Part shown: in pieces, positions 45,395 to 62,428 of the stretch
Layout of the letters: the number at the start of each line of letters is the position of its first letter
Position numbering within the stretch: position 1 is the first letter of the stretch
NCBI GenBank assembly: GCA_020831625.1
Contig: JAFIGD010000001.1
Coordinates: forward strand, 1-64,000
Length of the DNA: 64,000 bases
Direction: 5' to 3'
DNA from: Verrucomicrobiota bacterium
GTDB lineage: Bacteria > Verrucomicrobiota > Kiritimatiellia > SS1-B-03-39 > UBA6053
Program-made: the position numbers and the translations under genes
Notes under the pieces: model-generated
Told to the model about the DNA's origin: nothing
Database searches by the model: none
What the model saw: the letters and a program-made list of their open reading frames with translations, nothing else

Positions 45395-45575
45395 CCAAAC
45401 GTCTCACCTCTCACCCACGCGTTCCGCGTGGCAAGCTCTTACCTCTTTTCCTGGCCTCCGAGCTCCTCCTCATTCGTCACTGATCATTCGTCACTCGTCA
45501 CTCCATACACTCGTCACTCGTCTCTCCACACACTCGTCATTCGTCACTCGTCATTCCCCCCACTCGTAACTCTTA
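45395..45575. repeat. Degenerate repeat tract downstream of RAYT 2
   Basis: CTCACCTCTCACCC/CTCTTACCTC units (45399-45450, similar to 129-165) are followed by CACTCGTCATTCGTCACT-type repeats (45470-45575). The end of the transposase gene (TSGGNDE) is encoded within it. The stretch 45288-45395 holds nothing I recognise. Confidence 0.8.
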
Positions 45576-46722
45576 GTGCTTCCATCCCCAACCAGTCCCT
45601 GCCCGGCAACTTCCGCCCCGCCGCATTCCGGTCCTTGCCGAAACTTCCCCGATGCTCTGTCATCAACCGCCCCAAAAACGCATCCCCGCCAATCGCCACC
45701 CCGCGTGAGAATGTCTTCACCCGCTGACGCAGCATCCGCGCCATCGGCACCGCACCCATCCGCTCCATCTCCGCCATCACCTCCACCTCATCAAACCCTT
45801 TCCGATCCCGCATTTTCTTTCGAATCCGGTCCACATTCACTTTTGATTCCCCCTTCGCGTACAGCCAAAGCCGGTACACCGCCTGCACCTCACCCCAATC
45901 CTTCGGCGCCACCCGCTGCCGTGACTCCCGGTCCAGCTTCTCCCCGATTTCCCGCCAGGTCCCCGGCATTTCTTTGTTCAACGTCATCGTCCTCACCCCC
46001 TCCGCCTTCTGTGGCACCACCCCCCGCGCCAGACGCACCAGCATCTCCAGCCCCTCTCGCTCCGTCTTCCCACCCCCGCACGCCGCCGCATAGCCACTCC
46101 ACCGATACTCCATCGGATCCTCCACCATCCCCGCCCGAATCGGATTCAAATCAATATACGCCGCCACCGACATCAGCGCCAGCGGCGTCCCCTCCACCAC
46201 CACACTCCGGTACCGCGCGTCCCAGAACGCCCCCTTGCAGTCATGCGTCCGGTTATACCACAGCGTATACCCATGCTTCAACACCCGCATAAACTCCGCC
46301 AAATCACACATCCGGTCGATCACCTGCGCATCCAGTTTCTTCTGATCCTCCTCCGAATGCAGCCCGTAAAACCCCTCCCACTCCTTCACCTTATCCTTCG
46401 ACCACACCAGCTTCAACCGCCGCACAACCTCCTCATGCCCAATCTCCTCCTTCTCCGGCACCCAAAGCAACAGGTGAAAATGATTCGACATCACACAATA
46501 CGTCACCACCGTAATCCCCGAAAACTCCGCCCACCGGAACGCCAGTTCCCTGAACGCCTCCTTCTCTTTGGTTCCCAGCAAAAAATCCTGCCCCCGCACA
46601 CGACTCGTCACATGCACAAAATATCCGCCCTCTTTCGGCAGCACCCGCTCCCGCTTTTGGACCACTTTCTCCACAAAAGGCCACCCCGGCCCCGGAATCT
46701 TCGATGACAACGGAATAATCAT
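45544..46722 (-). CDS. REP-associated tyrosine transposase (RAYT), copy 2
   Basis: A 392-residue near-duplicate of the protein at 4082-5275, with the same HUH-superfamily marks (YFVHVTSRV, HFHLLL, YIDLNPIRAGMVEDP). Identity is very high over the first 240 and last 130 residues. A segment of roughly 40 residues (after PQKAEGVR, up to APKDWGEVQA) differs in sequence and length. The frame is intact, so both copies may be active. The leader and REP sequence are shared with copy 1. Confidence 0.88.
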   Translation of the reverse strand: MIIPLSSKIPGPGWPFVEKVVQKRERVLPKEGGYFVHVTSRVRGQDFLLGTKEKEAFRELAFRWAEFSGITVVTYCVMSNHFHLLLWVPEKEEIGHEEVVRRLKLVWSKDKVKEWEGFYGLHSEEDQKKLDAQVIDRMCDLAEFMRVLKHGYTLWYNRTHDCKGAFWDARYRSVVVEGTPLALMSVAAYIDLNPIRAGMVEDPMEYRWSGYAAACGGGKTEREGLEMLVRLARGVVPQKAEGVRTMTLNKEMPGTWREIGEKLDRESRQRVAPKDWGEVQAVYRLWLYAKGESKVNVDRIRKKMRDRKGFDEVEVMAEMERMGAVPMARMLRQRVKTFSRGVAIGGDAFLGRLMTEHRGSFGKDRNAAGRKLPGRDWLGMEALRVTSGGNDE

Positions 46723-46806: not shown

Positions 46807-48294
46807 TCATATGTTCAAATTGCTCAAAGACGCCCGACTGAAGACGGCGGCCTCCGAACAGGGCTGTCCGTTGCCTGAAGCATAGACCCCGGCCATCAGG
46901 CCTGTCCAGCCCGTGGCCACCTCTGTGCAGAACAACCGCCGTTCCGCCGTCGCAAAGGAACGCAGGTCCGGCTCCGCCTCCGCGGCGAGCATCGTGAAGA
47001 CACGGGCGTTGCCCGAAATCCGCAAACAAACTGTCCCGCCTCCGGTCCAATCAAACACCTCCTCCACACACAGGTCCAACACCCGCCGCCGCAACAGCAG
47101 AACCGGGCTGTCACCGCGACGCGTCACCACCCACTCCAGATGGCAGTCATCCGCCATGACCAGGGCCAGCCCCGCCTCCTCTCCGTCCCGCTTCGGGGCG
47201 AACCGCATATCCGCCGTCCAGGTGAACGCGTAGCGATCCAGCCGAATTCCCCGGAACGCCTCCGGCTCCGCGTCGCTCAGCGTCGACGCGCCGCCCGACA
47301 GGCGGAGTCCCCCGGACACCACCGCCTGTGAGAGGTCCGGCCTTCGCCGCGCCACCCACCGGGGCCCCAAACAATCTCCCTCGAATCGGTCCTCAAACGG
47401 TTCCGGCGCGGGCCCGCTTTCCTCCACCGGCTGTGAAATCACCGGCCAACCCTCTTTCCAGTGCATCGGCGCGTAAAAGGTTTCCCGACCCAAATGATGA
47501 AACGCCTGCCCTCCGAATCCGTGATGCCGCGTCCCCAAAAACACGATACCCCACTTGCCGTCCTCCTCTTCGAACCAATCCCCGTGACCCGTATACCGCA
47601 CCGGATGGTTCGGCAGATGCCGGTGCGTTAAAATCGGATTCTGTGGACAGGGTTCAAACGGTCCCCAGGGCGACACCGACCGCGCCACGGTCAGACAATG
47701 CCCCCAGCCCGTGCCGCCCTCCGCTGTCAGCAGGTAATACCAACCGCCAACCCGATAGAGATGGGGTCCCTCGATATCGTCCGTGCACCATGGGCGCGCG
47801 ATTTCACGGAGCGGTGTCAGCAACCGGCCCGACCGCACATCAATTTCGGCCTGAACAATGCAAAATCCGTGCCTTCGTGTGTAGTACACCCGGCCGTCCC
47901 CGTCGAAAAACAGCGACGGATCAAACCAGGGCTCCCCCTCATCCGTAATCCACACCGGATCCGACCAGGGGCCCGCCGGATGTTTGGCGGACACAATAAA
48001 ATTCCCCCTGCCCCCCACCTGCGTGCTGATCACATAAAAAATTCCCCCGTGATAACGCAGAGTCGGCGCGAAAATTCCTTCCGAACAGCGTGTCTTCGAA
48101 AAATCCATCTGCTCCGGACGGTGTAAGGCGTGCCCCTCAAGTGTCCAGGTGCGCAAGTCCCGGCTTTTGTAAATCGGCAATCCCGGAAAATACTCGAATG
48201 TGCTTGTGCACACATAGTAATCCCCTCCCGCGCGACAGATCGAGGGATCGGGATGAAACCCCGGCAACACCGGGTTCCGCATCGGCTCGGTCAT
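46807..48294 (-). CDS. GH43-family beta-xylosidase/alpha-arabinofuranosidase
   Basis: About 495 residues, no signal peptide. The five-blade propeller carries the GH43 acidic triad: Asp in NPVLPGFHPDPSICR, Asp in GEPWFDPSLFFD, and the general acid Glu in TDDIEGPHLY near residue 180. A C-terminal beta-sandwich (from about residue 310) is the accessory domain common in GH43 subfamilies acting on xylan or arabinan side chains. It probably trims oligosaccharides in the cytoplasm. Its start overlaps the sulfatase stop in ATGA, so desulfation and hydrolysis are co-expressed. Confidence 0.92.
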   Translation of the reverse strand: MTEPMRNPVLPGFHPDPSICRAGGDYYVCTSTFEYFPGLPIYKSRDLRTWTLEGHALHRPEQMDFSKTRCSEGIFAPTLRYHGGIFYVISTQVGGRGNFIVSAKHPAGPWSDPVWITDEGEPWFDPSLFFDGDGRVYYTRRHGFCIVQAEIDVRSGRLLTPLREIARPWCTDDIEGPHLYRVGGWYYLLTAEGGTGWGHCLTVARSVSPWGPFEPCPQNPILTHRHLPNHPVRYTGHGDWFEEEDGKWGIVFLGTRHHGFGGQAFHHLGRETFYAPMHWKEGWPVISQPVEESGPAPEPFEDRFEGDCLGPRWVARRRPDLSQAVVSGGLRLSGGASTLSDAEPEAFRGIRLDRYAFTWTADMRFAPKRDGEEAGLALVMADDCHLEWVVTRRGDSPVLLLRRRVLDLCVEEVFDWTGGGTVCLRISGNARVFTMLAAEAEPDLRSFATAERRLFCTEVATGWTGLMAGVYASGNGQPCSEAAVFSRASLSNLNI

Positions 48295-49520
48295 GGCGTG
48301 CACGGATCCCCGACGTCCCGAAGCCATTTCAGCAACTGTGTCCGCAAATCCGACTCCGTCTCCCGCAGCGCCTCCGATCCGGCCAGATTGTTAAATTCAT
48401 CCGGATCCGCCCGCAAATCATACAGCTCCCAAACCGGACGGGCCACCGCCGGTCCGGAGGCGTCAAGACGCTCCGGCGGCGGAACCCGGTACGGCTCCGG
48501 CCCCAAATTCCAAATCAGTTTGTATGCCCGGGTGCGAATGCACCGGCAGGCCCCGTTGTAATACACACCGAAAAACGGAGCTTCGTCGGGCGAAGCGCCC
48601 TCTGGATCGCACACCCGGTCCGCAAACGCCGTGCCGTCCGCCTCTGCAAGCGGCGGCAGCCCCGCCAATTGCAGCAGGGTCGGCAGAAAATTCAAATTAC
48701 TCTGCACATCCCCCAGCCGCCGCCCCGCCGGAATCCCCGGTCCTCTGAAAATACAGGGGATTTCCAGGCCCGGATCATACAGCGTCCACTTGTCCCGGCG
48801 GGACTCGATGCCGTGATCCGACGTGAACACCACAATTGTCTCATCCCGCAATCCATGCGCGTCAAGCGCGGCCAGAATACGCCCGACCCCCTCGTCCGCC
48901 TGACGAATCGCCCCCTGCAATCCCGCAAAATGATGTTCCGCCTCCCCGGTCCGCTCCAAATACGGCGGCACCTCCACACCCCGCGAACGGTCCGGAACCG
49001 CGCCGCCGAACCAAAAGGGCGTATGCGTCTCATTGAATCCGATTTGCGCGTAAAAGGGACGGTCGTCCGACCGGGTTTCCAAAAAGGCCGCGAAGCCCTC
49101 CGCCACCTCCGGAGCCGACTTGAACATAAAGGGATACTGCGGATCCCCGGTCTGCGGCACCTCATAGCGCTCAAAGCCCAGACGTTTCCACCCGCCTTCA
49201 TCCGCCTCATGCTGAAACGAAAACAGCACCGGCTCATATCCCCGCTCCCGCAACAACTCCGCCGCATGTTTCACCCCGTCGTTCAAGCGGAAACCGTGAT
49301 GCGTCAGGCCCACCAGCCCGTTCCGCTGCGGAGCCAGCCCCGTCATCGCCGCCCCCCGCGAGGGACTGCAAATCGGCGACACTGAAAAATACCCGTCCAG
49401 CGTCACCCCCTCCGACGCCAGCCGGTCAATGTGGGGCGTGTGAACCGTCCCGTGACCGTAACACCCGAACCACTTTCCGGAATCATGCGTGGAAATCACA
49501 ATCAGATGAGGTTTTTTCAT
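48291..49520 (-). CDS. Sulfatase (S1 family, Cys type)
   Basis: A 409-residue sulfatase. The maturation motif CSPSR (in SPICSPSRGAAMTG) near residue 51 supplies the Cys converted to formylglycine. Metal-site elements include VISTHDSGKWFGCYG at the N-terminus and VVFTSDHGIE near residue 235. No signal peptide is evident, so it may act inside the cell on sulfated oligosaccharides before GH43. It needs a formylglycine-generating enzyme; a related domain is encoded at 58918-61257. It is divergent from the LacI regulator. Confidence 0.92.
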   Translation of the reverse strand: MKKPHLIVISTHDSGKWFGCYGHGTVHTPHIDRLASEGVTLDGYFSVSPICSPSRGAAMTGLAPQRNGLVGLTHHGFRLNDGVKHAAELLRERGYEPVLFSFQHEADEGGWKRLGFERYEVPQTGDPQYPFMFKSAPEVAEGFAAFLETRSDDRPFYAQIGFNETHTPFWFGGAVPDRSRGVEVPPYLERTGEAEHHFAGLQGAIRQADEGVGRILAALDAHGLRDETIVVFTSDHGIESRRDKWTLYDPGLEIPCIFRGPGIPAGRRLGDVQSNLNFLPTLLQLAGLPPLAEADGTAFADRVCDPEGASPDEAPFFGVYYNGACRCIRTRAYKLIWNLGPEPYRVPPPERLDASGPAVARPVWELYDLRADPDEFNNLAGSEALRETESDLRTQLLKWLRDVGDPCTP

Positions 49521-49566
49521 GAATCCAGCCTACACCGAATCCCCTCCGGAAAAAGAGCCCGGATAA

Positions 49567-49580
49567 ACGCAACCTTGCAT
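49567..49580. promoter_or_regulatory. Candidate LacI-family operator, site 1
   Basis: ACGCAA-CC-TTGCAT, a 14-base near-palindrome between the sulfatase start (49520) and the lacI start (49610). A matching site at 50646 has the same arms with GG in the centre, i.e. the same motif on the other strand. Position allows repression of both divergent genes. Confidence 0.65.
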
Positions 49581-49609
49581 TCCCGACGCGTCAACGCTAT
49601 CCTGCCGCC

Positions 49610-50638
49610 ATGAGTCCCACGTCCCCCCGCATCACCCTCGGCATGATCGCCCAAAAAGCCGATGTCTCCCGGGCCACCGTGTCCCGCGCCCTGCGCAACC
49701 ATCCTCAGTTGCCCCGCCACACCTGCGAGCGCATTCAGGCCATCGCCGAAGATATGGGGTGGCGGCCCGATCCCGAAACCTCCCGCCTCATGCATCACCT
49801 CCGCGAAAGCCGCCAGGTCCAGCGGGTCTCCACCCTCGCCATTCTCAACGACTACCCGGGCCGCAAAGATCCCTACAACGATCCCTACACCGCCGCCCTC
49901 CTCCACAGCGCCCGGCGGCGCGCCGACACCCTCGGTTATCACATCGACGAACTCTGGCTGCGCGAACCCGGCCTCACCGCCCGCCGCGCCACCGGAATCC
50001 TCCACGCCCGGGGCATCACCGGGGTTCTCGTCCCTCCCGAAATTGACCCCCTCCCCCAACTGCCGCTCGACTGGTCGAGTTTCAGCTCCGTCGCCACCAC
50101 CACCACCGCCCAGCCCGCGACCATGAACCGCGTCCTGCCCGACAACTACGGCAATCTCTGCAAACTCATGGACGCCCTCCTTCGGCGGAAACGCAAGCGC
50201 GTTTGGCTCCTCAGCCTCAAAGGCCTCGAGGACCGCACCGAACACTGTCCCAGCAACGTGTACCACGCCTACACCGCTCAGACGCCGTCTCTTACCACGC
50301 TCCCGGTTTTCTACTGGGACACCTACCCCTGCGGAGACGACGCCGCCGCCGCCATGACCGAACTGTACGTCCGACACAAACCCGACACCGTCATCGTCGC
50401 CGACGCCTGGCTGCTCGACACCCTCGAACGCCGCACCCAAACCCGGCGCCGCAAAGACTACCTCGCCCTCTGCTACTCCAACGCCCAGCCCGGCCTCCCC
50501 GGCATCAACCAGCGCCCCGAACTGGTCGGCTCCGCCGCCATCGACCTCCTCTCCGCCCACATTCTCCGCGGCGAAACCGGACTCCCCGAAGTGCCCAAAC
50601 TCCTGCGCATCCCCGGAACCCTCGAAGGCGACCTCTGA
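49610..50638 (+). CDS. LacI-family transcription regulator
   Basis: A 342-residue regulator with an N-terminal LacI HTH (ITLGMIAQKADVSRATVSRA followed by LRNHPQLPRHT) and hinge, then a sensor domain. The sensor is divergent from canonical periplasmic-binding-like members, with weak GVDN-like motifs. It likely senses a sugar released by the sulfatase or GH43. Operator-like palindromes lie on both sides of the gene. The one downstream also precedes the secreted-protein gene. Confidence 0.88.
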   Translation: MSPTSPRITLGMIAQKADVSRATVSRALRNHPQLPRHTCERIQAIAEDMGWRPDPETSRLMHHLRESRQVQRVSTLAILNDYPGRKDPYNDPYTAALLHSARRRADTLGYHIDELWLREPGLTARRATGILHARGITGVLVPPEIDPLPQLPLDWSSFSSVATTTTAQPATMNRVLPDNYGNLCKLMDALLRRKRKRVWLLSLKGLEDRTEHCPSNVYHAYTAQTPSLTTLPVFYWDTYPCGDDAAAAMTELYVRHKPDTVIVADAWLLDTLERRTQTRRRKDYLALCYSNAQPGLPGINQRPELVGSAAIDLLSAHILRGETGLPEVPKLLRIPGTLEGDL

Positions 50639-50645
50639 TTCAGCA

Positions 50646-50659
50646 ACGCAAGGTTGCAT
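50646..50659. promoter_or_regulatory. Candidate LacI-family operator, site 2
   Basis: ACGCAA-GG-TTGCAT, 49 bases before the secreted-protein ATG at 50708 and 8 bases after the lacI stop. Same arms as site 1. It suggests the secreted protein belongs to the same regulon. Confidence 0.65.
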
Positions 50660-50707
50660 GCGAACAGCGTGTCCCGACACCCGTGTAAGGACTATTCTGC
50701 ATTTCTT

Positions 50708-51346
50708 ATGAAAACATTCCTTCACACCCTCCTTGCCATGCCGCTTGCCTTTGCCGCCGCCACACTCCACGCGCAGGAGCCCCTGACAGCATTGCCCCGC
50801 CTCAGTGGCCGCGTTCAATATGTCAAAAACCCCGGAGCCGGTTCCGGGGCCATGAAATTCATAGACAGCCCTCTGCCGCAACCCGAAATCCGGGTGGGAC
50901 CCACCCGCGAATCCGGTGTCGCCATGGGTGCGCTGCTCGCCTTTAAAACGACCCCCGAAATCCGGCGGCACATCGCCGACGGCTCCCGGCTCGAACTTCT
51001 CATTGATGTCGACGGCACCTCCCGCGGCGGAGCCCCCGCCGATCTGGTCGTCGCCCTCCTCAACACCGGCAGCACCGATGATCATTCCGCCTTCGTCCAC
51101 TTCGGGGCCTGGAACAATGCGGCGAATTTCGCCGAAGTCGGCATCCTCGAAGCCGACCCCGAAAAAGGTCTTCATCTCTTCAACATCACCGAAGCGCTCC
51201 GCGCCGCCGCCACTCAGCCCACCGAAGCCACCCCCGTTATTTGGTTTGCCATCTACCTTCCCGAAGATAAAATCGCCGGCGGACAGGAAGGCGAACACGT
51301 CATCCTCGGCGGCAATCCGCGCATCATCGTCCGCCCCGGACGATGA
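50708..51346 (+). CDS. Secreted protein of unknown function
   Basis: A 212-residue protein with a clear signal peptide (MKTFLHTLLAMPLAFAAATL then HAQ). The mature part is beta-rich with motifs such as GALLAFKTTPEIRRHI and LIDVDGTSRGGAPADL. The pattern suggests a jelly-roll or carbohydrate-binding-like fold, but I recognise no family. There is no PEP-CTERM or lipobox. The position right after lacI, behind operator site 2, links it to the sulfated-glycan module. Confidence 0.7.
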   Translation: MKTFLHTLLAMPLAFAAATLHAQEPLTALPRLSGRVQYVKNPGAGSGAMKFIDSPLPQPEIRVGPTRESGVAMGALLAFKTTPEIRRHIADGSRLELLIDVDGTSRGGAPADLVVALLNTGSTDDHSAFVHFGAWNNAANFAEVGILEADPEKGLHLFNITEALRAAATQPTEATPVIWFAIYLPEDKIAGGQEGEHVILGGNPRIIVRPGR

Positions 51347-51400
51347 ACTCTTAACAGATTGTTCAATATATACATGAATTCGATTTGAATACTCGGGCGA

Positions 51401-51429
51401 AAAGGATTAGGATCATAAACACATCCTTT
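51401..51429. promoter_or_regulatory. Inverted repeat upstream of the third XylR-type regulator
   Basis: AAAGGAT (51401-51407) and ATCCTTT (51423-51429) face each other across 15 bases, 16 bases before the ATG at 51446. It could be a self-operator. One half also resembles a ribosome site, so the call is weak. Confidence 0.25.
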
Positions 51430-51445
51430 AAAATCCAACCGCCCG

Positions 51446-52639
51446 ATGTTTTCAGAAAACCACCTATCCAATACCCCTCTTGCCCCTTCCCGCCCGCTGG
51501 TGGCTCTGGTCGGATTTGCAATGAGCGGTCTGGACGCGGAAATTCTGCGCGGCATTCAGGAATACGCCCACAACTATAACTGGCAGCTGTTCAACGCCAA
51601 TTCGGAGTGGGGCATCGAACAAGTTGAAGGCAATGCCGAACTGATCCACGGTGTGATCGCGGTGGTGGCGGATGCGGAACGGGCCGAATGGCTCCGCACA
51701 TTGAACTGCCCGGCCGTGAATGTCTCGAACACCTTTCCGGAAACCTATGGATTCCCCGCTGTGCTCAGCCAGGATTCACGGGTCGGAGAGCTGGCCGCCG
51801 AATACTTTCAGGAACGGGGGTACAGCAATTTCGCGGCGTATTTTCTGCCCGGGGACCATCCATACCGCTACATCAACACCCGCGCCGCCGCGTTCGCGCG
51901 GACCGTGAAGGCCCGGGGGCGGATCTGTCACGGCATCCTGGATGTCTATCCGGAAGAGCGGGCCGCCCGGTTAAAGGCCGAAGGCTGGGAAATGAAAACC
52001 CTCCGGGATCTGCCCAAGCCCTGCGGCATATTCTGCATCGACGATCAGCAGGGATCCTACATCAGCTTTATGGCCCTCTCGCGCGGCCTGCGGATTCCCT
52101 CCGAAGTGGGGGTTCTGGGCGGTGACAATTTTCAACTCTACTGCAATATGTCCAACCCGCCCCTGTCCAGCGTGGACCTCGACGGCCCGCAGATCGGCCG
52201 AACCGCGGCGGAAACCCTGCAACGCTTTATGAGCGACGGCAAACCCGCGCCTTACGAACTCATTGAAGTGCCGCCCCGGGGCGTGGTGAGCCGCGCCACC
52301 GTGGACACATCCGCCATACAGAACCCCCTGCTTGCCCGCACCCGGCAATATATTCTGGAGCACAGCCACGAACGAATCAATGTCAGCGACATCGTTCGGG
52401 CCGTGCGAACCAGTCGGCGCAAACTCGAAACCCTCTACCAGGCGGAACTCGGCTTAAGCCTGCTCCAATCCCTCAATCAGGCCAGAATCGACCACAGCCG
52501 CCGCCTCTTGCAGGACACCGATCTGCCCCTGTACAAAATCGCGGGCCTCTGCGGTTTCCGCGACACGCATCAAATGAACCGGGTGTTTACCCGGCACGGT
52601 GCACCGTCGCCCAAGGAGATCAGGAAAAATACGCCTTAG
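51446..52639 (+). CDS. XylR-type regulator (LacI-like sensor plus AraC HTH), 3
   Basis: A 397-residue protein. The sensor domain starts PLVALVGFAMSGLDAEILRG and includes DSRVGELAAEYFQERGY, FCIDDQQGSYIS and EVGVLGGDNFQLY. The C-terminal AraC double HTH has INVSDIVRAVRTSRRKLETL and LYKIAGLCGFRDTHQMNRVF. As with the other two XylR-type proteins here, DNA binding is C-terminal. It follows the secreted-protein gene on the same strand; its target is not obvious. It converges with the YlbF-like gene 4 bases away. Confidence 0.87.
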   Translation: MFSENHLSNTPLAPSRPLVALVGFAMSGLDAEILRGIQEYAHNYNWQLFNANSEWGIEQVEGNAELIHGVIAVVADAERAEWLRTLNCPAVNVSNTFPETYGFPAVLSQDSRVGELAAEYFQERGYSNFAAYFLPGDHPYRYINTRAAAFARTVKARGRICHGILDVYPEERAARLKAEGWEMKTLRDLPKPCGIFCIDDQQGSYISFMALSRGLRIPSEVGVLGGDNFQLYCNMSNPPLSSVDLDGPQIGRTAAETLQRFMSDGKPAPYELIEVPPRGVVSRATVDTSAIQNPLLARTRQYILEHSHERINVSDIVRAVRTSRRKLETLYQAELGLSLLQSLNQARIDHSRRLLQDTDLPLYKIAGLCGFRDTHQMNRVFTRHGAPSPKEIRKNTP

Positions 52640-53154: not shown

Positions 53155-54456
53155 ATGTTTGACGTCCGCGAAAAACCGAAAATGGTCGAGCGGGCCTTTC
53201 TGGTCGGGGTTCACCTCAAAAACGACGCCCCGGCCGAGGCCGAGGACCTCCTGCGGGAACTCCACGAGTTGGTGACCACCCTGGGCATCGGCATTGTCGG
53301 CAGCGCCCTCGTGGATGTCCGCCAGTGGCAGGCCCGTCTGCTCATGGGCAGTGGCAAGGCGGAGGAAATCCTAGAACAGATCCAATCCGCCAATGCGGAC
53401 TGTGTCGTGTTCGACAACGAACTCAGCCCCGCCCAGCAACGCAACTGGGAGGCCTTCACCGGACGCACCGTGATCGACCGCCAGGAAGTGATTCTGGATA
53501 TTTTCGGCGCCCGGGCCCAAACCAAAGAGGCCAAACTTCAGGTCGAACTCGCCCGCATGGAATACAATCTGCCCCGGCTCAAGCGCGCCTGGGGACACCT
53601 GGGCCGTCAGGGCGGCGGCAGCGGAGGGGGAGGCGGCGGAGGAGGCGGCGCGCACCGCGGCGAAGGCGAACAACAGATCGAAATGGACCGCCGCATGGTC
53701 CGCGAACGCATCAGCAGCCTCAAACGCGAACTCACCGATGTGCGCGGACACCGCGCGACCCAGCGCAAAGAACGCAGCCGCATTCCCCTGCCCCACGCCG
53801 CCATCGTCGGATACACCAACGCCGGCAAAAGCTCCCTGCTCAAAGCCCTCACCGGCTCGGAGGTCTACGTGGCCGACAAACTCTTCGCCACCCTCGACAC
53901 CACCACCCGCCGCATCGAACTGCCCAACGGCCGCCCACTGCTCATGACCGACACCGTGGGCTTTGTCCGCCGCCTGCCCCACCGCCTCGTCGAATCCTTC
54001 AAAGCCACCCTCGAAGAGGCCGTCCTCGCCGACTTTCTCGTGCATGTGCTCGACATCAACGCCCCGGAGGTCGAGGCCTTCCACCGCACCACCCTCGAAG
54101 TCCTGCAAGAACTCGGGGCCGACCAGAAACGCATCATCACCGTCTTCAACAAACTCGATGTCCCCGGAGCCGCCGCCGCCCGCGCCGCGGTGCAACTGCA
54201 CCATCCCGATGCCGTCTTCGTCTCCGCGGTCACCGGCGAGGGCCTCGACCGCCTTCAGGAGCGCATGGCCGACCTGCTCGCCGACCAGATCCGCCACCTG
54301 AAACTCATCCTGCCCCACAGCCGCTCCGACCTCGTCGCCCGCCTCCACGAACACGCCCACGTCAACCACTGCGCCTACGAAGACGACGGTGTCCACGTCG
54401 ACGCCACCGTCCCCCGCCGCCTCGCCGACGAACTGACCGCCTGGACCCTCGCCTGA
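53155..54456 (+). CDS. hflX: Ribosome-associated GTPase HflX
   Basis: A 433-residue GTPase that splits stalled 70S ribosomes under stress. The N-terminal HflX domain has LLMGSGKAEEI and VFDNELSPAQQRNWE. The GTPase domain has G1 GYTNAGKSSLL, G2/G3 DTVGFVRRLPH and G4 NKLD. The linker, normally GGGIGTRGPGETQLE-like, is expanded to a glycine tract (GGGSGGGGGGGGGAHRGEGE) near residues 158-178. The start could also be the ATG at 53182 (MVERAFLV). Confidence 0.92.
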   Translation: MFDVREKPKMVERAFLVGVHLKNDAPAEAEDLLRELHELVTTLGIGIVGSALVDVRQWQARLLMGSGKAEEILEQIQSANADCVVFDNELSPAQQRNWEAFTGRTVIDRQEVILDIFGARAQTKEAKLQVELARMEYNLPRLKRAWGHLGRQGGGSGGGGGGGGGAHRGEGEQQIEMDRRMVRERISSLKRELTDVRGHRATQRKERSRIPLPHAAIVGYTNAGKSSLLKALTGSEVYVADKLFATLDTTTRRIELPNGRPLLMTDTVGFVRRLPHRLVESFKATLEEAVLADFLVHVLDINAPEVEAFHRTTLEVLQELGADQKRIITVFNKLDVPGAAAARAAVQLHHPDAVFVSAVTGEGLDRLQERMADLLADQIRHLKLILPHSRSDLVARLHEHAHVNHCAYEDDGVHVDATVPRRLADELTAWTLA

Positions 54457-58110: not shown

Positions 58111-58926
58111 TTGGCCCTTTTCCATTCCCATTTTTTTTCCGAAACGCTCGGCATGCAGACCGGCGCGGCCGTCATCATTCCGCAACCGGCCGGCGCGCGT
58201 CAGATTGGCGTGGACACGGTCCATCAAGACCAGGGAACCTGGCCCTGTCTCTGGCTCCTGCACGGGCTGTCGGATGATCACACCGGCTGGACCCGCCGCA
58301 CCGCCATTGAGCGTTACGCCGAAGCCGCCGGCATCGCCGTGGTCATGCCCGACGTTCACCGCAGCTTCTACACCAACATGGTTCACGGCGGTGCCTACGG
58401 GGATTTTCTCCATGAAGAGCTGCCGCGGCTTATTCGGAGCTTTTTTCCGCTGTCCGCCGCGAAACGCGACAACGCGGTGGCAGGTCTCTCCATGGGCGGA
58501 TACGGAGCTTTCAAATGGGCCTTGAGCTGTCCGGAAAGTTTTCAGGCCGCCGCCAGCCTTTCGGGCGTCATGGATATTTCCGCCCGGTTTCAACAGTTGC
58601 GGACGCAGGAACCCGACAGCCTTCGCCGCGAAACCCTGACCCTGGTCTTCGGCGACCGGGATCCGGGCGGCGGCCCGGACGATCTCTTTCCCCTCGCGCA
58701 ATCCCTCGGCGGCAAAGCACCGCCCCTTCTGCAAATCTGCGGAACCGAAGACTTTCTCTATCCTGAAAACCTCCGTTTCCGCGATCACGCCCGAAATTGC
58801 GGAGTGCCGCTCGAATACCGCGAAGGGCCGGGAGACCACGAATGGGGTTTCTGGGACCGCGAAATCCAAACCGTTCTCGCCTGGCTCCCCGAACAGGGCT
58901 TCGGCACCGGAAATTCCTTATCGTAA
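58111..58926 (+). CDS. Esterase D/CE1-like alpha/beta hydrolase
   Basis: A 271-residue esterase. The nucleophile elbow is GLSMGGYGA near residue 128, with the oxyanion region LWLLHGLSDDHTGWTR near residue 48. An Asp lies in CGTEDFLYP and the catalytic His in GPGDHEWGFW. Close relatives include acetylxylan and feruloyl esterases and S-formylglutathione hydrolases. No signal peptide is visible. The start is a TTG at 58111, supported by the family-like MALFHSHFFSETLGM; the ATG at 58153 is the alternative. Its last 9 bases overlap the convergent gene. Confidence 0.85.
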   Translation: MALFHSHFFSETLGMQTGAAVIIPQPAGARQIGVDTVHQDQGTWPCLWLLHGLSDDHTGWTRRTAIERYAEAAGIAVVMPDVHRSFYTNMVHGGAYGDFLHEELPRLIRSFFPLSAAKRDNAVAGLSMGGYGAFKWALSCPESFQAAASLSGVMDISARFQQLRTQEPDSLRRETLTLVFGDRDPGGGPDDLFPLAQSLGGKAPPLLQICGTEDFLYPENLRFRDHARNCGVPLEYREGPGDHEWGFWDREIQTVLAWLPEQGFGTGNSLS

Positions 58927-61257
58927 AATCACATCCTCCAGCCAGGAATCGGCCTCGGCGCCGCCGATGATCAGACGGAAGCCCAAATCCGACTGACGGT
59001 TTCCGTGGCGGTGCCACTCCCGGGTCTCCAGCCCAAGAACGTGAGGCAGGCTCGACCAGGCACCGCCCCGGGACATCGGATACCGGAAAACCCGCATCCG
59101 CCCGTTCTCTTGGAACCTCGCCTCGCGCCGGTCACCCGACGCTGTCCATTCCAACACCCCGCCCAACACCCCGTAAAGCCCCGCCGCATCCGGGATCACC
59201 CCGTAAACGGAATTCGCCTCCGGCGAATCAGGGTTCACCCGCAGCGCGTGTACCGCATGCAGATCCGTCCCCCCCCGAACCGCGCTGCCGCGTCCGCCCC
59301 CGGTGGCGAAATGAAGCCACTCCGGTTCCGTCGGCAGCCGGGCGAGCAAATCCTCATGCCGCGCCGACAGCGTTTCCAACCACTCAATAATCTGAAGGTA
59401 ATCCCGCCGGGTCACCGGCAGGTCGGCCGTCCCGGAAGGCAACGCCGCCGCCTCCCCGCTTTGCACCGCCGCCCACTGGGCGCGGGTCACCGGCGTTTCC
59501 GCCACCCAAAAGCCCTCCGCCACTTCCACCCGGGTCACCGGATCATCCTCCACCCGGCCCCTCGGCTGATACTGCAAATGTTCCGGCAACGCCCACGTGC
59601 CCGGTTCGGTCCGGCGCAGGCGGATTTCAACACCCTCTTGCAAGGCGATCGCCACCCACGGACCGTACAAATCCACCCCGTGCGCATCCGCCCACCCCGG
59701 AAGCGGCGGCGCAAACGCCTTCTGGCCCCGTGTCAAAAACATTCCCGATTCCTGAGCGCCCCCCTCCTGCAGCACCCGCTGCGCCGCACCCTTCTCCCCC
59801 GAACGCCAAAGCGTGTTGGCCCGATAAAGTGTTTTGAAAAACTCCGCCTCTTCGCGCTCACGCGCCTCGATTTCGTCCAGCAACTCCGCCATCGTCGCCG
59901 AACGGCCGATCAGTTTCCGCACCGTCCGGGCCGCCTCGGCCGCCCGGAACCAATCCGAGCGCTCCGCGAAGGCCCTCGCCGCCTCCCCCTCCCGTTCCGC
60001 CAGAACCTCACGGGCTCTGCGGGACAAATCACGATGTGCCTCCGGCCACGCCGCATCCTCCGGCAGCCACAGCATCGACCCGTCCTGAACAAGAAACAGC
60101 CACTCACCGGGCCCCGGATCGGCTCCCCCCCCCACCGTGTGCGCGGCGGTCAGCACCTCCAGCGCGCCGAACGCCTCGCCCAACCCCAACAAAACCCCGG
60201 CGGTAAATTCCGGATCGTGCTCCGGAGCATCGAACGGAGCCTCCACCACATGACGGCGCACAAACCTCAGCAAAGCCTCCGGCGGTCCGGCGGCGCTGTG
60301 TCCGCCCTCCACAACCGACAACTCCGCCTCGATGCCCAAAGCCCGCCACAGCGCCACCGACGCCTCCGCATCCCGGTGATCCCCGCCGTAATCACGGTCG
60401 CCCCGCACCATATACAGCGGTGGCATCCGGTTCGAAACATGCGGAAAATTGTTGCGGATCCGCAGACTGTGACGGGTGCCGTCATTCCAGGCCGGATGCG
60501 GCCCGTGATGCAGCGCCGGCACCGAAAACCAGCGAGGTTTGCCAAATTCACCGAACGCCTCAAGCATCGGCCGGGTGTTCAGCGCCCCCGCCCACAGAAA
60601 CGTCCCCGCCACATTCACCCGGGTTTCGCCCCAGGGCAGACCCTGTGTGTGTAACGAATCCTGCGGCACCATGCCGATCAGCCCGATGGACCGAGCCCCG
60701 GCGCTGTGCCCCGCCAACATCACCCGCTCTGTCATCACATTCCAGTGCGCCCCGTTCTGTTGCAAAAAACGGATGCCGCAAAGCGGATCACTCACCGGCG
60801 CGGGCCAGCCGCTCTCCCGGGCCAGCCGATAGCCCACCGAAGCCACCGCAACCCCGTGATCCAGCACATAGCGAAACGACTCCGAAAAACTCCGCCGCGG
60901 GTCATGCACATTGATATTCGGCGTTCCGCCCATGAACCCGCCCCCGTGCACATGCACCAGAAGCGGATACGGCCCCTCCACCTCCTCCGCCGGTAAAATC
61001 AAATTCACCGGCAGGCCCCTCGACTCCACCGCCATCTCCTGAGTCCAGACCGACACCTCCGCCGCCACCAGCGCATAATGACGGTACCCGTTTTCCAACA
61101 CCGTCGGCTCCACCGCCAACGCCGCCGCCAGCAAAGCCGCCTCGTCATTCTCAACCACAGGCGGCAGCAACGCCGGAATGGTTCCCGCACAGACCGTCCA
61201 CGCGCCGGAAACACACCAAACAAACATCCGGCGGAAAAACAGAAGCCATATTTTCAT
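58918..61257 (-). CDS. Exported fusion of carboxylesterase and formylglycine-generating-enzyme-like domain
   Basis: 779 residues with a signal peptide (about 1-25). The first half is a BD-FAE/carboxylesterase-like alpha/beta hydrolase (LLVHVHGGGFMGGTPN, LAGHSAGARSIGL with the Ser nucleophile, His in VEGGHSAAGPP). A helical linker (about 400-510) leads to a C-terminal FGE/SUMF1-type domain (FWVAETPVTRAQWAAV, LPTEPEWLHFATGGG, YGVLGGVLEWTASG, LGFRLIIGG). True FGEs carry two active-site Cys; I see none in the expected segment here, so it is probably a lectin-like or enzyme variant. Likely acts on acylated polysaccharide outside the cytoplasm. Confidence 0.8.
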   Translation of the reverse strand: MKIWLLFFRRMFVWCVSGAWTVCAGTIPALLPPVVENDEAALLAAALAVEPTVLENGYRHYALVAAEVSVWTQEMAVESRGLPVNLILPAEEVEGPYPLLVHVHGGGFMGGTPNINVHDPRRSFSESFRYVLDHGVAVASVGYRLARESGWPAPVSDPLCGIRFLQQNGAHWNVMTERVMLAGHSAGARSIGLIGMVPQDSLHTQGLPWGETRVNVAGTFLWAGALNTRPMLEAFGEFGKPRWFSVPALHHGPHPAWNDGTRHSLRIRNNFPHVSNRMPPLYMVRGDRDYGGDHRDAEASVALWRALGIEAELSVVEGGHSAAGPPEALLRFVRRHVVEAPFDAPEHDPEFTAGVLLGLGEAFGALEVLTAAHTVGGGADPGPGEWLFLVQDGSMLWLPEDAAWPEAHRDLSRRAREVLAEREGEAARAFAERSDWFRAAEAARTVRKLIGRSATMAELLDEIEAREREEAEFFKTLYRANTLWRSGEKGAAQRVLQEGGAQESGMFLTRGQKAFAPPLPGWADAHGVDLYGPWVAIALQEGVEIRLRRTEPGTWALPEHLQYQPRGRVEDDPVTRVEVAEGFWVAETPVTRAQWAAVQSGEAAALPSGTADLPVTRRDYLQIIEWLETLSARHEDLLARLPTEPEWLHFATGGGRGSAVRGGTDLHAVHALRVNPDSPEANSVYGVIPDAAGLYGVLGGVLEWTASGDRREARFQENGRMRVFRYPMSRGGAWSSLPHVLGLETREWHRHGNRQSDLGFRLIIGGAEADSWLEDVILR

Positions 61258-61600: not shown

Positions 61601-62428
61601 TTACGCCTCTTGAATCAAGGCCCGTATCCGTTCCGCCGCCTGAAACGCCGCCTCCAAAAACGCACCGTGCTCCCCGTGCCGCTCCGGAGTCCAGCTCACC
61701 TCAAGCTGCGGAGCTTTCCGATACACACTCCGGCGGATAAACGCGGCGATCGCATCCCAGTCCGCATGCCCCTCCGGATCAAACGGGTTCCAGTGACGAT
61801 CCTTCTGCGTGTCATTGTCGTTCAAATGCAGAATCTCCAGCCGGGAGGCACAATGGGCCATCAGCCACTCCGAATTGCCTGAAATCAGCGCGTGTCCCGG
61901 ATCAAAGGTGAATCCGATGAAGTCCGCCGGAAACCGCTCAAACACCGCCTCAAGCGTCCGTCGGTCATTTCCGGCGATGTAGTGATTCTCAATGGCGATT
62001 TTCACCTCATGTTCACGGGCCGTCTCCTCAAGCGCCGCCAAGCCCTCCAGCAAAAAATCAATCTCCTCCCGGGTCACCGCGCCTCTCCACGGCACATGGT
62101 ACACCACCGCGTCACCGCCGAACGCCCGCGTCAGCGCGATCCGGTCCCGAAACAGCGCCAGGGCCTGTTCCCGGACCTTGGCCTCCGGCGACCACAGATC
62201 CACATTCCTTGGATGACATCCGTGCACATCCTGAACCCTCACCCCGCTGGCCGCCAAAGCCTCCGCCCACTCCGCCCGCTCCTCCGCCGTGAACGGCTCC
62301 GGTTTCGTCCACTTCCAGGCCAAATGCAGATGCGTGAACCCCGCCGCGCGAATCCGCCGCAGGTTTTCCTCCACCGACACACCCGGAGCGAACGCCTTGT
62401 CCGAAATTGAGAATCCGTCCTGAATCAT
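61601..62428 (-). CDS. Sugar phosphate isomerase/epimerase (xylose-isomerase-like TIM barrel)
   Basis: A 275-residue AP-endonuclease-2/IolE-like barrel. Metal-site residues are seen in KIAIENHY (Glu), FTFDPGHAL (Asp/His), ILHLNDND (His) and the late Glu in LEVSW. Members isomerise or epimerise keto-sugars such as tagatose, psicose or inosose. The substrate is not readable. Its ATG overlaps the phosphoesterase stop by 4 bases, so the pair is co-translated. Confidence 0.87.
   Translation of the reverse strand: MIQDGFSISDKAFAPGVSVEENLRRIRAAGFTHLHLAWKWTKPEPFTAEERAEWAEALAASGVRVQDVHGCHPRNVDLWSPEAKVREQALALFRDRIALTRAFGGDAVVYHVPWRGAVTREEIDFLLEGLAALEETAREHEVKIAIENHYIAGNDRRTLEAVFERFPADFIGFTFDPGHALISGNSEWLMAHCASRLEILHLNDNDTQKDRHWNPFDPEGHADWDAIAAFIRRSVYRKAPQLEVSWTPERHGEHGAFLEAAFQAAERIRALIQEA

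What the first reader, a model, noticed from the sequence alone, without database searches (positions are those of the whole stretch)
58918..61257. Esterase fused to a formylglycine-generating-enzyme-like domain in an exported protein
The protein pairs an alpha/beta hydrolase with a SUMF1/FGE fold. The FGE half lacks the visible catalytic Cys pair, so it is probably not a sulfatase activator. It may be a sugar-binding module as seen in some FGE-fold proteins. This is an unusual architecture next to another esterase gene.
Basis: partly seen in the sequence, partly recalled or inferred. Interest (0 to 1): 0.5.

Follow-up and report, generated by a model that had tools for sequence, protein, structure and literature searches.

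The report
Exported esterase with cysteine-less FGE domain
The gene encodes an apparently exported ester-cutting enzyme, probably acting on polysaccharides, joined to a domain that looks like a sulfatase activator but lacks its catalytic cysteines; the same fusion is kept in a handful of other uncultured bacteria, so it is real and rare, but built from known parts.

Summary
Confirmed. Window 58918-61257 (-) encodes 779 residues: a signal-peptide-like start, an alpha/beta-hydrolase of the BD-FAE/hormone-sensitive-lipase kind with invariant Ser185, Asp289 and His320, a helical middle (about 346-522) and a C-terminal PF03781 (FGE-type) domain. The FGE cysteine pair is absent: that domain has no Cys in any of 9 copies, window included, one of them cut off before the site. 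A true FGE with the pair lies elsewhere in the genome (1 of 6 PF03781 proteins). The fusion is not an assembly accident: 8 other metagenome-assembled genomes encode it, 7 to the end and 1 cut by its contig, at 47-78% identity, and the FGE part is constrained about as strongly as the esterase. It is rare: 4 of 12 genomes of the order, 3 of 387 sampled from the phylum, own genome included. GH43, GH39, GH94 or GH95 genes lie within 4 kb of 5 of the 8 other copies. Best reading: a secreted carbohydrate esterase whose cysteine-less FGE-type domain binds substrate or surface glycan. Substrate and binding role are inferred, not shown. New combination of known parts; modest interest.

The parts
58918..61257 (-). 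whole gene, 779 aa esterase-FGE fusion
   Evidence: homologs
61183..61257 (-). signal-peptide-like start, about residues 1-25 (boundary approximate)
   Evidence: hydrophobic N-terminus seen in the sequence and in homologs; no predictor run
60223..61182 (-). alpha/beta-hydrolase (BD-FAE / HSL type) domain, residues 26-345
   Evidence: Pfam BD-FAE and Abhydrolase_3; mostly confident part of the AlphaFold2 model, except about 233-255; VIA Z 20.3-20.4 to BD-FAE 6tkx/6xyc
60940..60948 (-). oxyanion-hole motif HGG, residues 104-106 (role recalled for the family)
   Evidence: invariant in 9 of 9 rows
60703..60705 (-). nucleophile Ser185 in GHSAG
   Evidence: invariant in 9 of 9 rows
60391..60393 (-). 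probable acid Asp289 (Asp293, also invariant, is the alternative)
   Evidence: invariant in 9 of 9 rows; the choice between the two is inference from the family pattern
60298..60300 (-). probable catalytic His320
   Evidence: invariant in 9 of 9 rows
59692..60222 (-). helical middle region, residues 346-522, no Pfam family
   Evidence: least conserved part
58921..59691 (-). cysteine-less FGE-type (C-type-lectin fold) domain, residues 523-779
   Evidence: Pfam PF03781; profile match to TvpA 2y3c 2.6e-11, PorK, SUMF2, ToxD, EgtB; no Cys
58975..59070 (-). segment RGGAWSS...GFR (residues 730-761), where true FGEs carry the catalytic Cys pair
   Evidence: alignment with the genome's own FGE; 8 complete rows

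Best explanation
An exported serine esterase of the BD-FAE / hormone-sensitive-lipase kind that removes acyl groups (acetyl, perhaps feruloyl) from a polysaccharide or oligosaccharide, with a C-terminal FGE-type C-type-lectin-fold domain that lacks the Cys pair and serves as a non-catalytic binding module, holding the enzyme on its substrate or on a surface glycan. Shown: the fusion, its conservation, the invariant Ser/Asp/His set, the missing Cys pair. Inferred: export, carbohydrate as substrate, and binding as the role of the FGE-type domain.
For: Pfam BD-FAE well above cut-off. Fold matches of the esterase half: tannase 4j0k Z 21.5, lipase Lip_vut4 6nkf 20.7, BD-FAE 6xyc 20.4 and 6tkx 20.3, GH43-CE 6mly 19.0 (rows within 1 are tied). 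BD-FAE is a feruloyl and acetyl xylan esterase (PMC8165983, abstract and section 11). HGG, Ser185, Asp289, His320 in 9 of 9. FGE part: best solved relative TvpA; the fold is called a general ligand-binding one that can also have enzyme function (PMC5006420, passages). Constraint: dN/dS 0.15 for the FGE part, 0.20 for the esterase part, window against L027; 76 of 257 columns invariant against 105 of 320, L029 left out. Carbohydrate enzymes near other copies: GH94 (L030), GH95 (L028, and L032 by 85% BLASTP identity), GH39 (L029), GH43 (L034). In the window a GH43 (37% identical to L034's), a sulfatase with CSPSR and a Peripla_BP_3/HTH_18 regulator lie 6-12 kb away. L033's neighbour P0002 also ends in a PF03781 domain.
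Against: No substrate and no ligand is shown. Other esterases match the profile better than BD-FAE does: lipase 7wol 1.3e-16, 6aae (titled chloramphenicol-metabolizing) 1.5e-15, BD-FAE 2.7e-12, though the first two align over a shorter stretch. The GH families differ between loci; no background rate was computed for these carbohydrate-enzyme-rich genomes. No GH was found among the 2 neighbours scanned each at L027, L031 and L033. In related genomes the FGE-type domain also sits on kinases and M56 peptidases, so sensing is as likely a general role as sugar binding. The FGE part could not be modelled (mean pLDDT 36.1).
Confidence: 0.5

Rival explanations
1. The FGE-type domain does not bind sugar but makes a protein-protein or structural contact (as PorK/GldK does in the T9SS ring), anchoring or oligomerising the esterase.
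For: PorK/GldK entries are the next solved matches after TvpA (9.5e-6 to 1.4e-5); 6 of 8 domain sequences match the GldK model weakly.
Against: The window scores 19.8 bits against a GldK cut-off of 350; TvpA matches better (2.6e-11). No T9SS gene was looked for.
Confidence: 0.25
2. The FGE-type domain is a sensor module for a small ligand or surface antigen that controls the esterase.
For: PF03781 domains are fused to Ser/Thr kinases (5 of 10 proteins) and M56 peptidases (2 of 10) among the long ones I picked from related genomes; FGE-type folds are putative antigen sensors in DGR systems (PMC10907252, passages).
Against: Pfam shows no signalling domain in this protein; the C-terminus is conserved, not hypervariable (RHGNRQxDLGFR in 8 of 8 complete rows).
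Confidence: 0.12
3. The FGE-type domain has its own chemistry, for instance a metal site using His667, His670 and His751.
For: His667 and His670 are invariant in 9 of 9 rows and His751 in 8 of 8 complete rows; at the first two, the related domain L012 has Ser and a gap, so they are particular to this family; FGE and EgtB are metal enzymes (recalled).
Against: No known metal motif was recognised; the structure of this part is unknown, so it is not known whether these His come together.
Confidence: 0.05
4. A working FGE that activates sulfatases, fused to an esterase.
For: PF03781 above cut-off; 52 sulfatase matches in the genome.
Against: No Cys pair in the 8 rows that reach the site; a canonical FGE with the pair exists at contig C67 (L001).
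Confidence: 0.01
5. Artefact: a chimeric contig, or a decayed domain without function.
For: The homologs come from metagenome bins; five of eight contigs are under 10 kb.
Against: Nine copies, the others 47-78% identical to the window's, with both domains in one frame; dN/dS 0.05-0.15 in the FGE part for three pairs, the two lowest with saturated dS.
Confidence: 0.02

Closest known systems
BD-FAE (bifunctional feruloyl / acetyl xylan esterase, PDB 6tkx, 6xyc; PMC8165983)
   Same: alpha/beta-hydrolase with Ser-Asp-His triad; Pfam BD-FAE above cut-off; fold match Z 20.3-20.4 over 249-250 residues
   Different: 19% identity; the BD-FAE chains in the PDB are 293-300 aa and so lack the middle and FGE-type parts
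TvpA, Treponema denticola variable protein (PDB 2y3c)
   Same: FGE-type C-type-lectin fold (PMC5006420, passages); best profile match of the C-terminal domain, 2.6e-11
   Different: TvpA is a DGR variable protein; here the C-terminus is conserved and attached to an esterase
Formylglycine-generating enzyme (PDB 6s07, 5nxl, 1y1e; own-genome copy L001)
   Same: same Pfam domain PF03781; RLPTE.EW and GFR motifs
   Different: no Cys pair; 23% identity to L001
Bifunctional GH43-CE BACEGG_01304 (PDB 6mly)
   Same: multidomain protein whose esterase half has the same fold (Z 19.0)
   Different: by its title the partner is a GH43, not an FGE-type domain
Prolyl oligopeptidases with 'formylglycine-generating sulfatase' domain (PMC4522959; only a figure legend seen)
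   Same: another alpha/beta-hydrolase listed with an FGE-type partner
   Different: different hydrolase family; details not seen

Membership tests
BD-FAE-like / HSL-type esterase | Pfam BD-FAE above the curated cut-off | tested here: met
   68.3 against 26.8 bits; also L028, L030, L034, the three homologs scanned
BD-FAE-like / HSL-type esterase | HGG motif, GxSxG nucleophile, Asp and His of the triad | tested here: met
   HGG 104-106, GHSAG 183-187, D289, H320 invariant in 9 of 9 rows; geometry not measured
BD-FAE-like / HSL-type esterase | feruloyl/acetyl esterase activity on xylan | not testable with these tools
   needs an assay
Formylglycine-generating enzyme (sulfatase activator) | PF03781 domain | tested here: met
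   61.8 against 23.3 bits
Formylglycine-generating enzyme (sulfatase activator) | C-terminal copper-binding Cys pair (C....C after GGS; copper role recalled) | tested here: not met
   no Cys in residues 523-779; aligned positions are Ser and Leu; absent in the 8 rows that reach the site
DGR variable protein (TvpA type) | hypervariable C-terminal repeat with template repeat and reverse transcriptase | tested here: inconclusive
   C-terminus conserved across homologs, which speaks against it; no search for a template repeat or reverse transcriptase was made
EgtB / PorK-GldK | NCBIfam equivalog score above cut-off | tested here: not met
   window domain: 18.4 against 360 and 19.8 against 350 bits

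The most novel reading that the evidence does not exclude
The cysteine-less FGE-type domain is an unrecognised glycan-binding module, in effect a carbohydrate-binding-module family, that these bacteria attach to different exported enzymes (this esterase family; perhaps the protein P0002 beside the L033 copy) and that travels between distantly related polysaccharide degraders of similar habitats. It would explain part of the surplus of FGE-domain genes in such bacteria.
Probability: 0.3. Interest if true: 0.5.

Novelty: new variant of a known kind. Interest (0 to 1): 0.3.

Why it matters
[quoted passage not shown] Here is a concrete, testable case: in this genome 5 of 6 PF03781 proteins lack the Cys pair by motif search, and one of them is a conserved part of a likely carbohydrate esterase. 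If the domain binds glycans, it would give a function to a class of proteins now named after sulfatase modification.

Tried and rejected
Structure of the FGE-type domain: the full-length AlphaFold2 model (9 sequences) is mostly confident up to residue about 512 and poor after it; the domain alone with 8 sequences failed (mean pLDDT 36.1), so no fold search was made with it, and the fold is argued from sequence profiles only. In the 50 rows shown of the 1000 chains re-aligned to the full model, all aligned ranges lie within residues 37-362; no FGE entry is among them, which says nothing because that part of the model is poor.

The genome-contig scan with the single protein confirmed none of 18 stretches; the scan with alignment A1 gave 9 loci, of which L035 (30% over about 84 residues, 6e-5) was dropped as an ordinary alpha/beta-hydrolase. 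Both scans rest on short peptide patterns, so the count of copies is a lower bound. Search for shared neighbours by all-against-all BLASTP (ORFs of 200 aa or more of 8 loci and 14 window ORFs): besides the fusion gene itself and antisense ORFs of it, matches are those between the two Opitutales loci L028 and L032, and L034's GH43 with the window's GH43, 10 kb from the window gene (37%). L033's neighbour P0002: its first 472 residues have no solved relative (best E 0.44) and the whole has no Pfam family besides PF03781, so calling it an enzyme is a guess. The idea of a DGR target was set aside because the C-terminus is conserved; not tested further.

Literature: no paper of the library holds both 'formylglycine-generating enzyme' and 'feruloyl esterase'. 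The other searches list no paper that by title or start of abstract describes this fusion; several lists were capped (15 of 293; 10 of 15, 12 and 18), and bodies were read only where passages are cited. So 'not in print' is not claimed beyond that.
Full report
OBSERVATION. The ORF 58918-61257 (-) is real: 779 aa, ATG start. Pfam gives BD-FAE at 88-235 (8.8e-19), Abhydrolase_3 at 100-318 (1.9e-12) and FGE-sulfatase at 565-763 (1.1e-16), all above their curated cut-offs. The 14 NCBIfam models listed (acetyl esterase, HSL groups, EgtB, GldK and others) are all far below cut-off. The first 25 or so residues look like a signal peptide, as in homologs, but no predictor was run.

THE FUSION IS CONSERVED. 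Own genome included, full-length matches were found in 4 of 58 relatives (own, G001, G002, G011), 4 of 12 genomes of the order (the same four) and 3 of 387 sampled from the phylum, one of them cut by its contig end (own, G001, G330; at most two candidates per genome scored). A pattern scan of the named species genomes with the alignment of the first four gave eight loci with the fusion, with these identities to the window protein: L027 78, L028 59, L029 62 (cut by its contig at about residue 714), L030 52, L031 52, L032 60, L033 49, L034 47%. With the window that makes nine copies. Record titles call them PVC group bacterium (L027, L029, L033), Opitutales (L028, L032), Phycisphaeraceae (L030), Planctomycetota (L031) and Verrucomicrobia (L034); these are labels of metagenome bins. 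Three titles carry T3Sed10; one paper explains that name as sediment of the soda lake Tanatar-3 and places g__JAIUMY01, the accession prefix of L028, in Canadian soda lakes (PMC13274419, passages). So at least 4 of the 8 appear to come from soda lakes; the origin of the rest was not checked.

NOT SIMPLY VERTICAL. I compared the fusion with one other protein of the window, 53155-54456, which I read as an HflX-type GTPase (no family search was made). Identity of that protein and of the fusion: L027 95 and 78; L034 84 and 47; L028 58 and 59; L032 57 and 60; L033 45 and 49; L030 42 and 52; L029 41 and 62; L031 40 and 52%. The two orders disagree most for L034 and L029. Gene transfer or old paralogs would explain this; so would wrong binning of short contigs (L029 5.0 kb, L034 9.1 kb). 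Pairwise values suggest two groups, window/L027/L028/L029/L032 and L030/L031/L033/L034; no tree was built.

ESTERASE HALF. HGG (104-106), GHSAG (183-187), Asp289, Asp293 and His320 are invariant in 9 of 9 rows. Asp289 as the acid is inference from the family pattern. The AlphaFold2 model of this half is mostly confident, except about residues 233-255. VIA-align gives Z 21.5 to a tannase (4j0k), 20.7 to a rumen lipase (6nkf), 20.4 and 20.3 to BD-FAE (6xyc, 6tkx) and 19.0 to the esterase of a GH43-CE fusion (6mly), over 249-276 residues. BD-FAE removes feruloyl and acetyl groups from xylans (PMC8165983, abstract and section 11). By profile, lipase 7wol (1.3e-16) and the esterase 6aae (1.5e-15) score better than BD-FAE (2.7e-12), over a shorter stretch, so homology does not fix the substrate.

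FGE-TYPE HALF. No Cys occurs in residues 523-779 of the window protein or in the same part of the other eight; L029 ends before the critical site. Aligned with the genome's own true FGE (L001, which carries GGSFLCHPDYC and matches solved FGEs at up to 2.5e-79), the two Cys positions are Ser and Leu. Profile search of solved structures, 10 distinct sequences at E up to 1: TvpA 2.6e-11, PorK entries about 1e-5, SUMF2 7.8e-5, ToxD 1.4e-4, EgtB 1.5e-4, the other two 0.12 and 0.3. The FGE type of C-type-lectin fold is described as belonging to a general ligand-binding motif that can also have enzyme function (PMC5006420, passages). Selection: window against L027 dN/dS 0.20 esterase, 0.24 middle, 0.15 FGE part; L028 against L032 0.08, 0.11, 0.05; window against L032 0.12, 0.22, 0.14; dS is above 1 in the last two pairs and thus saturated. 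Invariant columns: 105 of 320, 23 of 177, 76 of 257, L029 left out. The FGE part is under constraint like the catalytic part, which argues for a function. Its structure could not be modelled.

GENOME SETTING. The window's genome has six PF03781 matches; one, L001, has the Cys pair by motif search. It has 52 matches to the sulfatase family, some of them pieces of one gene, one of them in the window (48291-49520) with CSPSR, the formylglycine-site pattern as I recall it. So sulfatase activation has its own enzyme. Among long PF03781 proteins that I picked from this and related genomes, 5 of 10 are kinases and 2 of 10 M56 peptidases; of 9, single ones carry Ig-type, PA14, zinc-ribbon or hydrazine-synthase-alpha domains. 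These are examples and not rates.

NEIGHBOURS. Upstream in the window, on the same strand, lies a xylose-isomerase-like TIM-barrel protein (61601-62428); downstream is a convergent esterase (58111-58926). Six to twelve kb away are a GH43 with GH43_C2, a sulfatase and a Peripla_BP_3/HTH_18 regulator. Beside other copies: GH94 about 4 kb off and an SMP-30 lactonase-like gene (L030), GH95 1.5 kb off (L028; L032's copy is 85% identical by BLASTP, not scanned), GH39 (L029), GH43 with GH43_C2 directly beside the gene (L034), another alpha/beta-hydrolase two genes away (L031), a protein ending in an FGE-type domain (L033), an SHD1 protein (L027). That is 5 of 8 loci with a named GH family; one to six neighbours per locus were scanned, none of L032's, and no background rate was computed. 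GH43 alone has 9 matches in the window's genome (8 above cut-off) and 5 in L034's. The GH families differ between loci, and the only neighbours shared are those of the Opitutales pair and the GH43 of L034 and window.

CONCLUSION. The best mechanism is an exported carbohydrate esterase with a non-catalytic FGE-type binding module (0.5 for the whole; about 0.85 for esterase activity alone). It is a rare, conserved combination of known parts. It becomes more interesting if the domain proves to be a glycan-binding module used on several enzymes.

Noticed in passing
L033:2065-4119 (P0002): Neighbour of the L033 copy: 684 aa protein with a PF03781 domain at its C-terminus and a long N-terminal part without Pfam or solved relative; possibly another enzyme-FGE fusion.
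   Followed up: partly
L001:1480-2574 (G000 contig C67): The genome's only PF03781 protein with the Cys pair by motif search (1 of 6).
   Followed up: yes
window 46807-52639: Carbohydrate cluster: GH43 with GH43_C2, sulfatase with CSPSR, Peripla_BP_3/HTH_18 regulator. The 593 aa ORF at 49517-51298 between them has no Pfam match and a biased composition, so it is probably not a gene.
   Followed up: partly
window 45544-46722: IS200-like transposase (Y1_Tnp, 2e-9) just beside the GH43/sulfatase cluster.
   Followed up: no
L066:3732-7172: 1146 aa protein with a hydrazine-synthase-alpha middle domain and a C-terminal PF03781 domain.
   Followed up: no
L059:742-4479, L059:14932-17820, L060:3219-6614, L064:2513-4627, L046:759-4028, L047:2317-4917, L048:2-3247: Ser/Thr kinases (first five) and M56 peptidases (last two) with PF03781 domains in related genomes; L048 has three such stretches.
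   Followed up: no
window 58918-61257 and L027-L034: Identity of the fusion among genomes disagrees with that of the HflX-like protein (47% against 84% for L034, 62% against 41% for L029): gene transfer, paralogs or misbinned contigs.
   Followed up: partly
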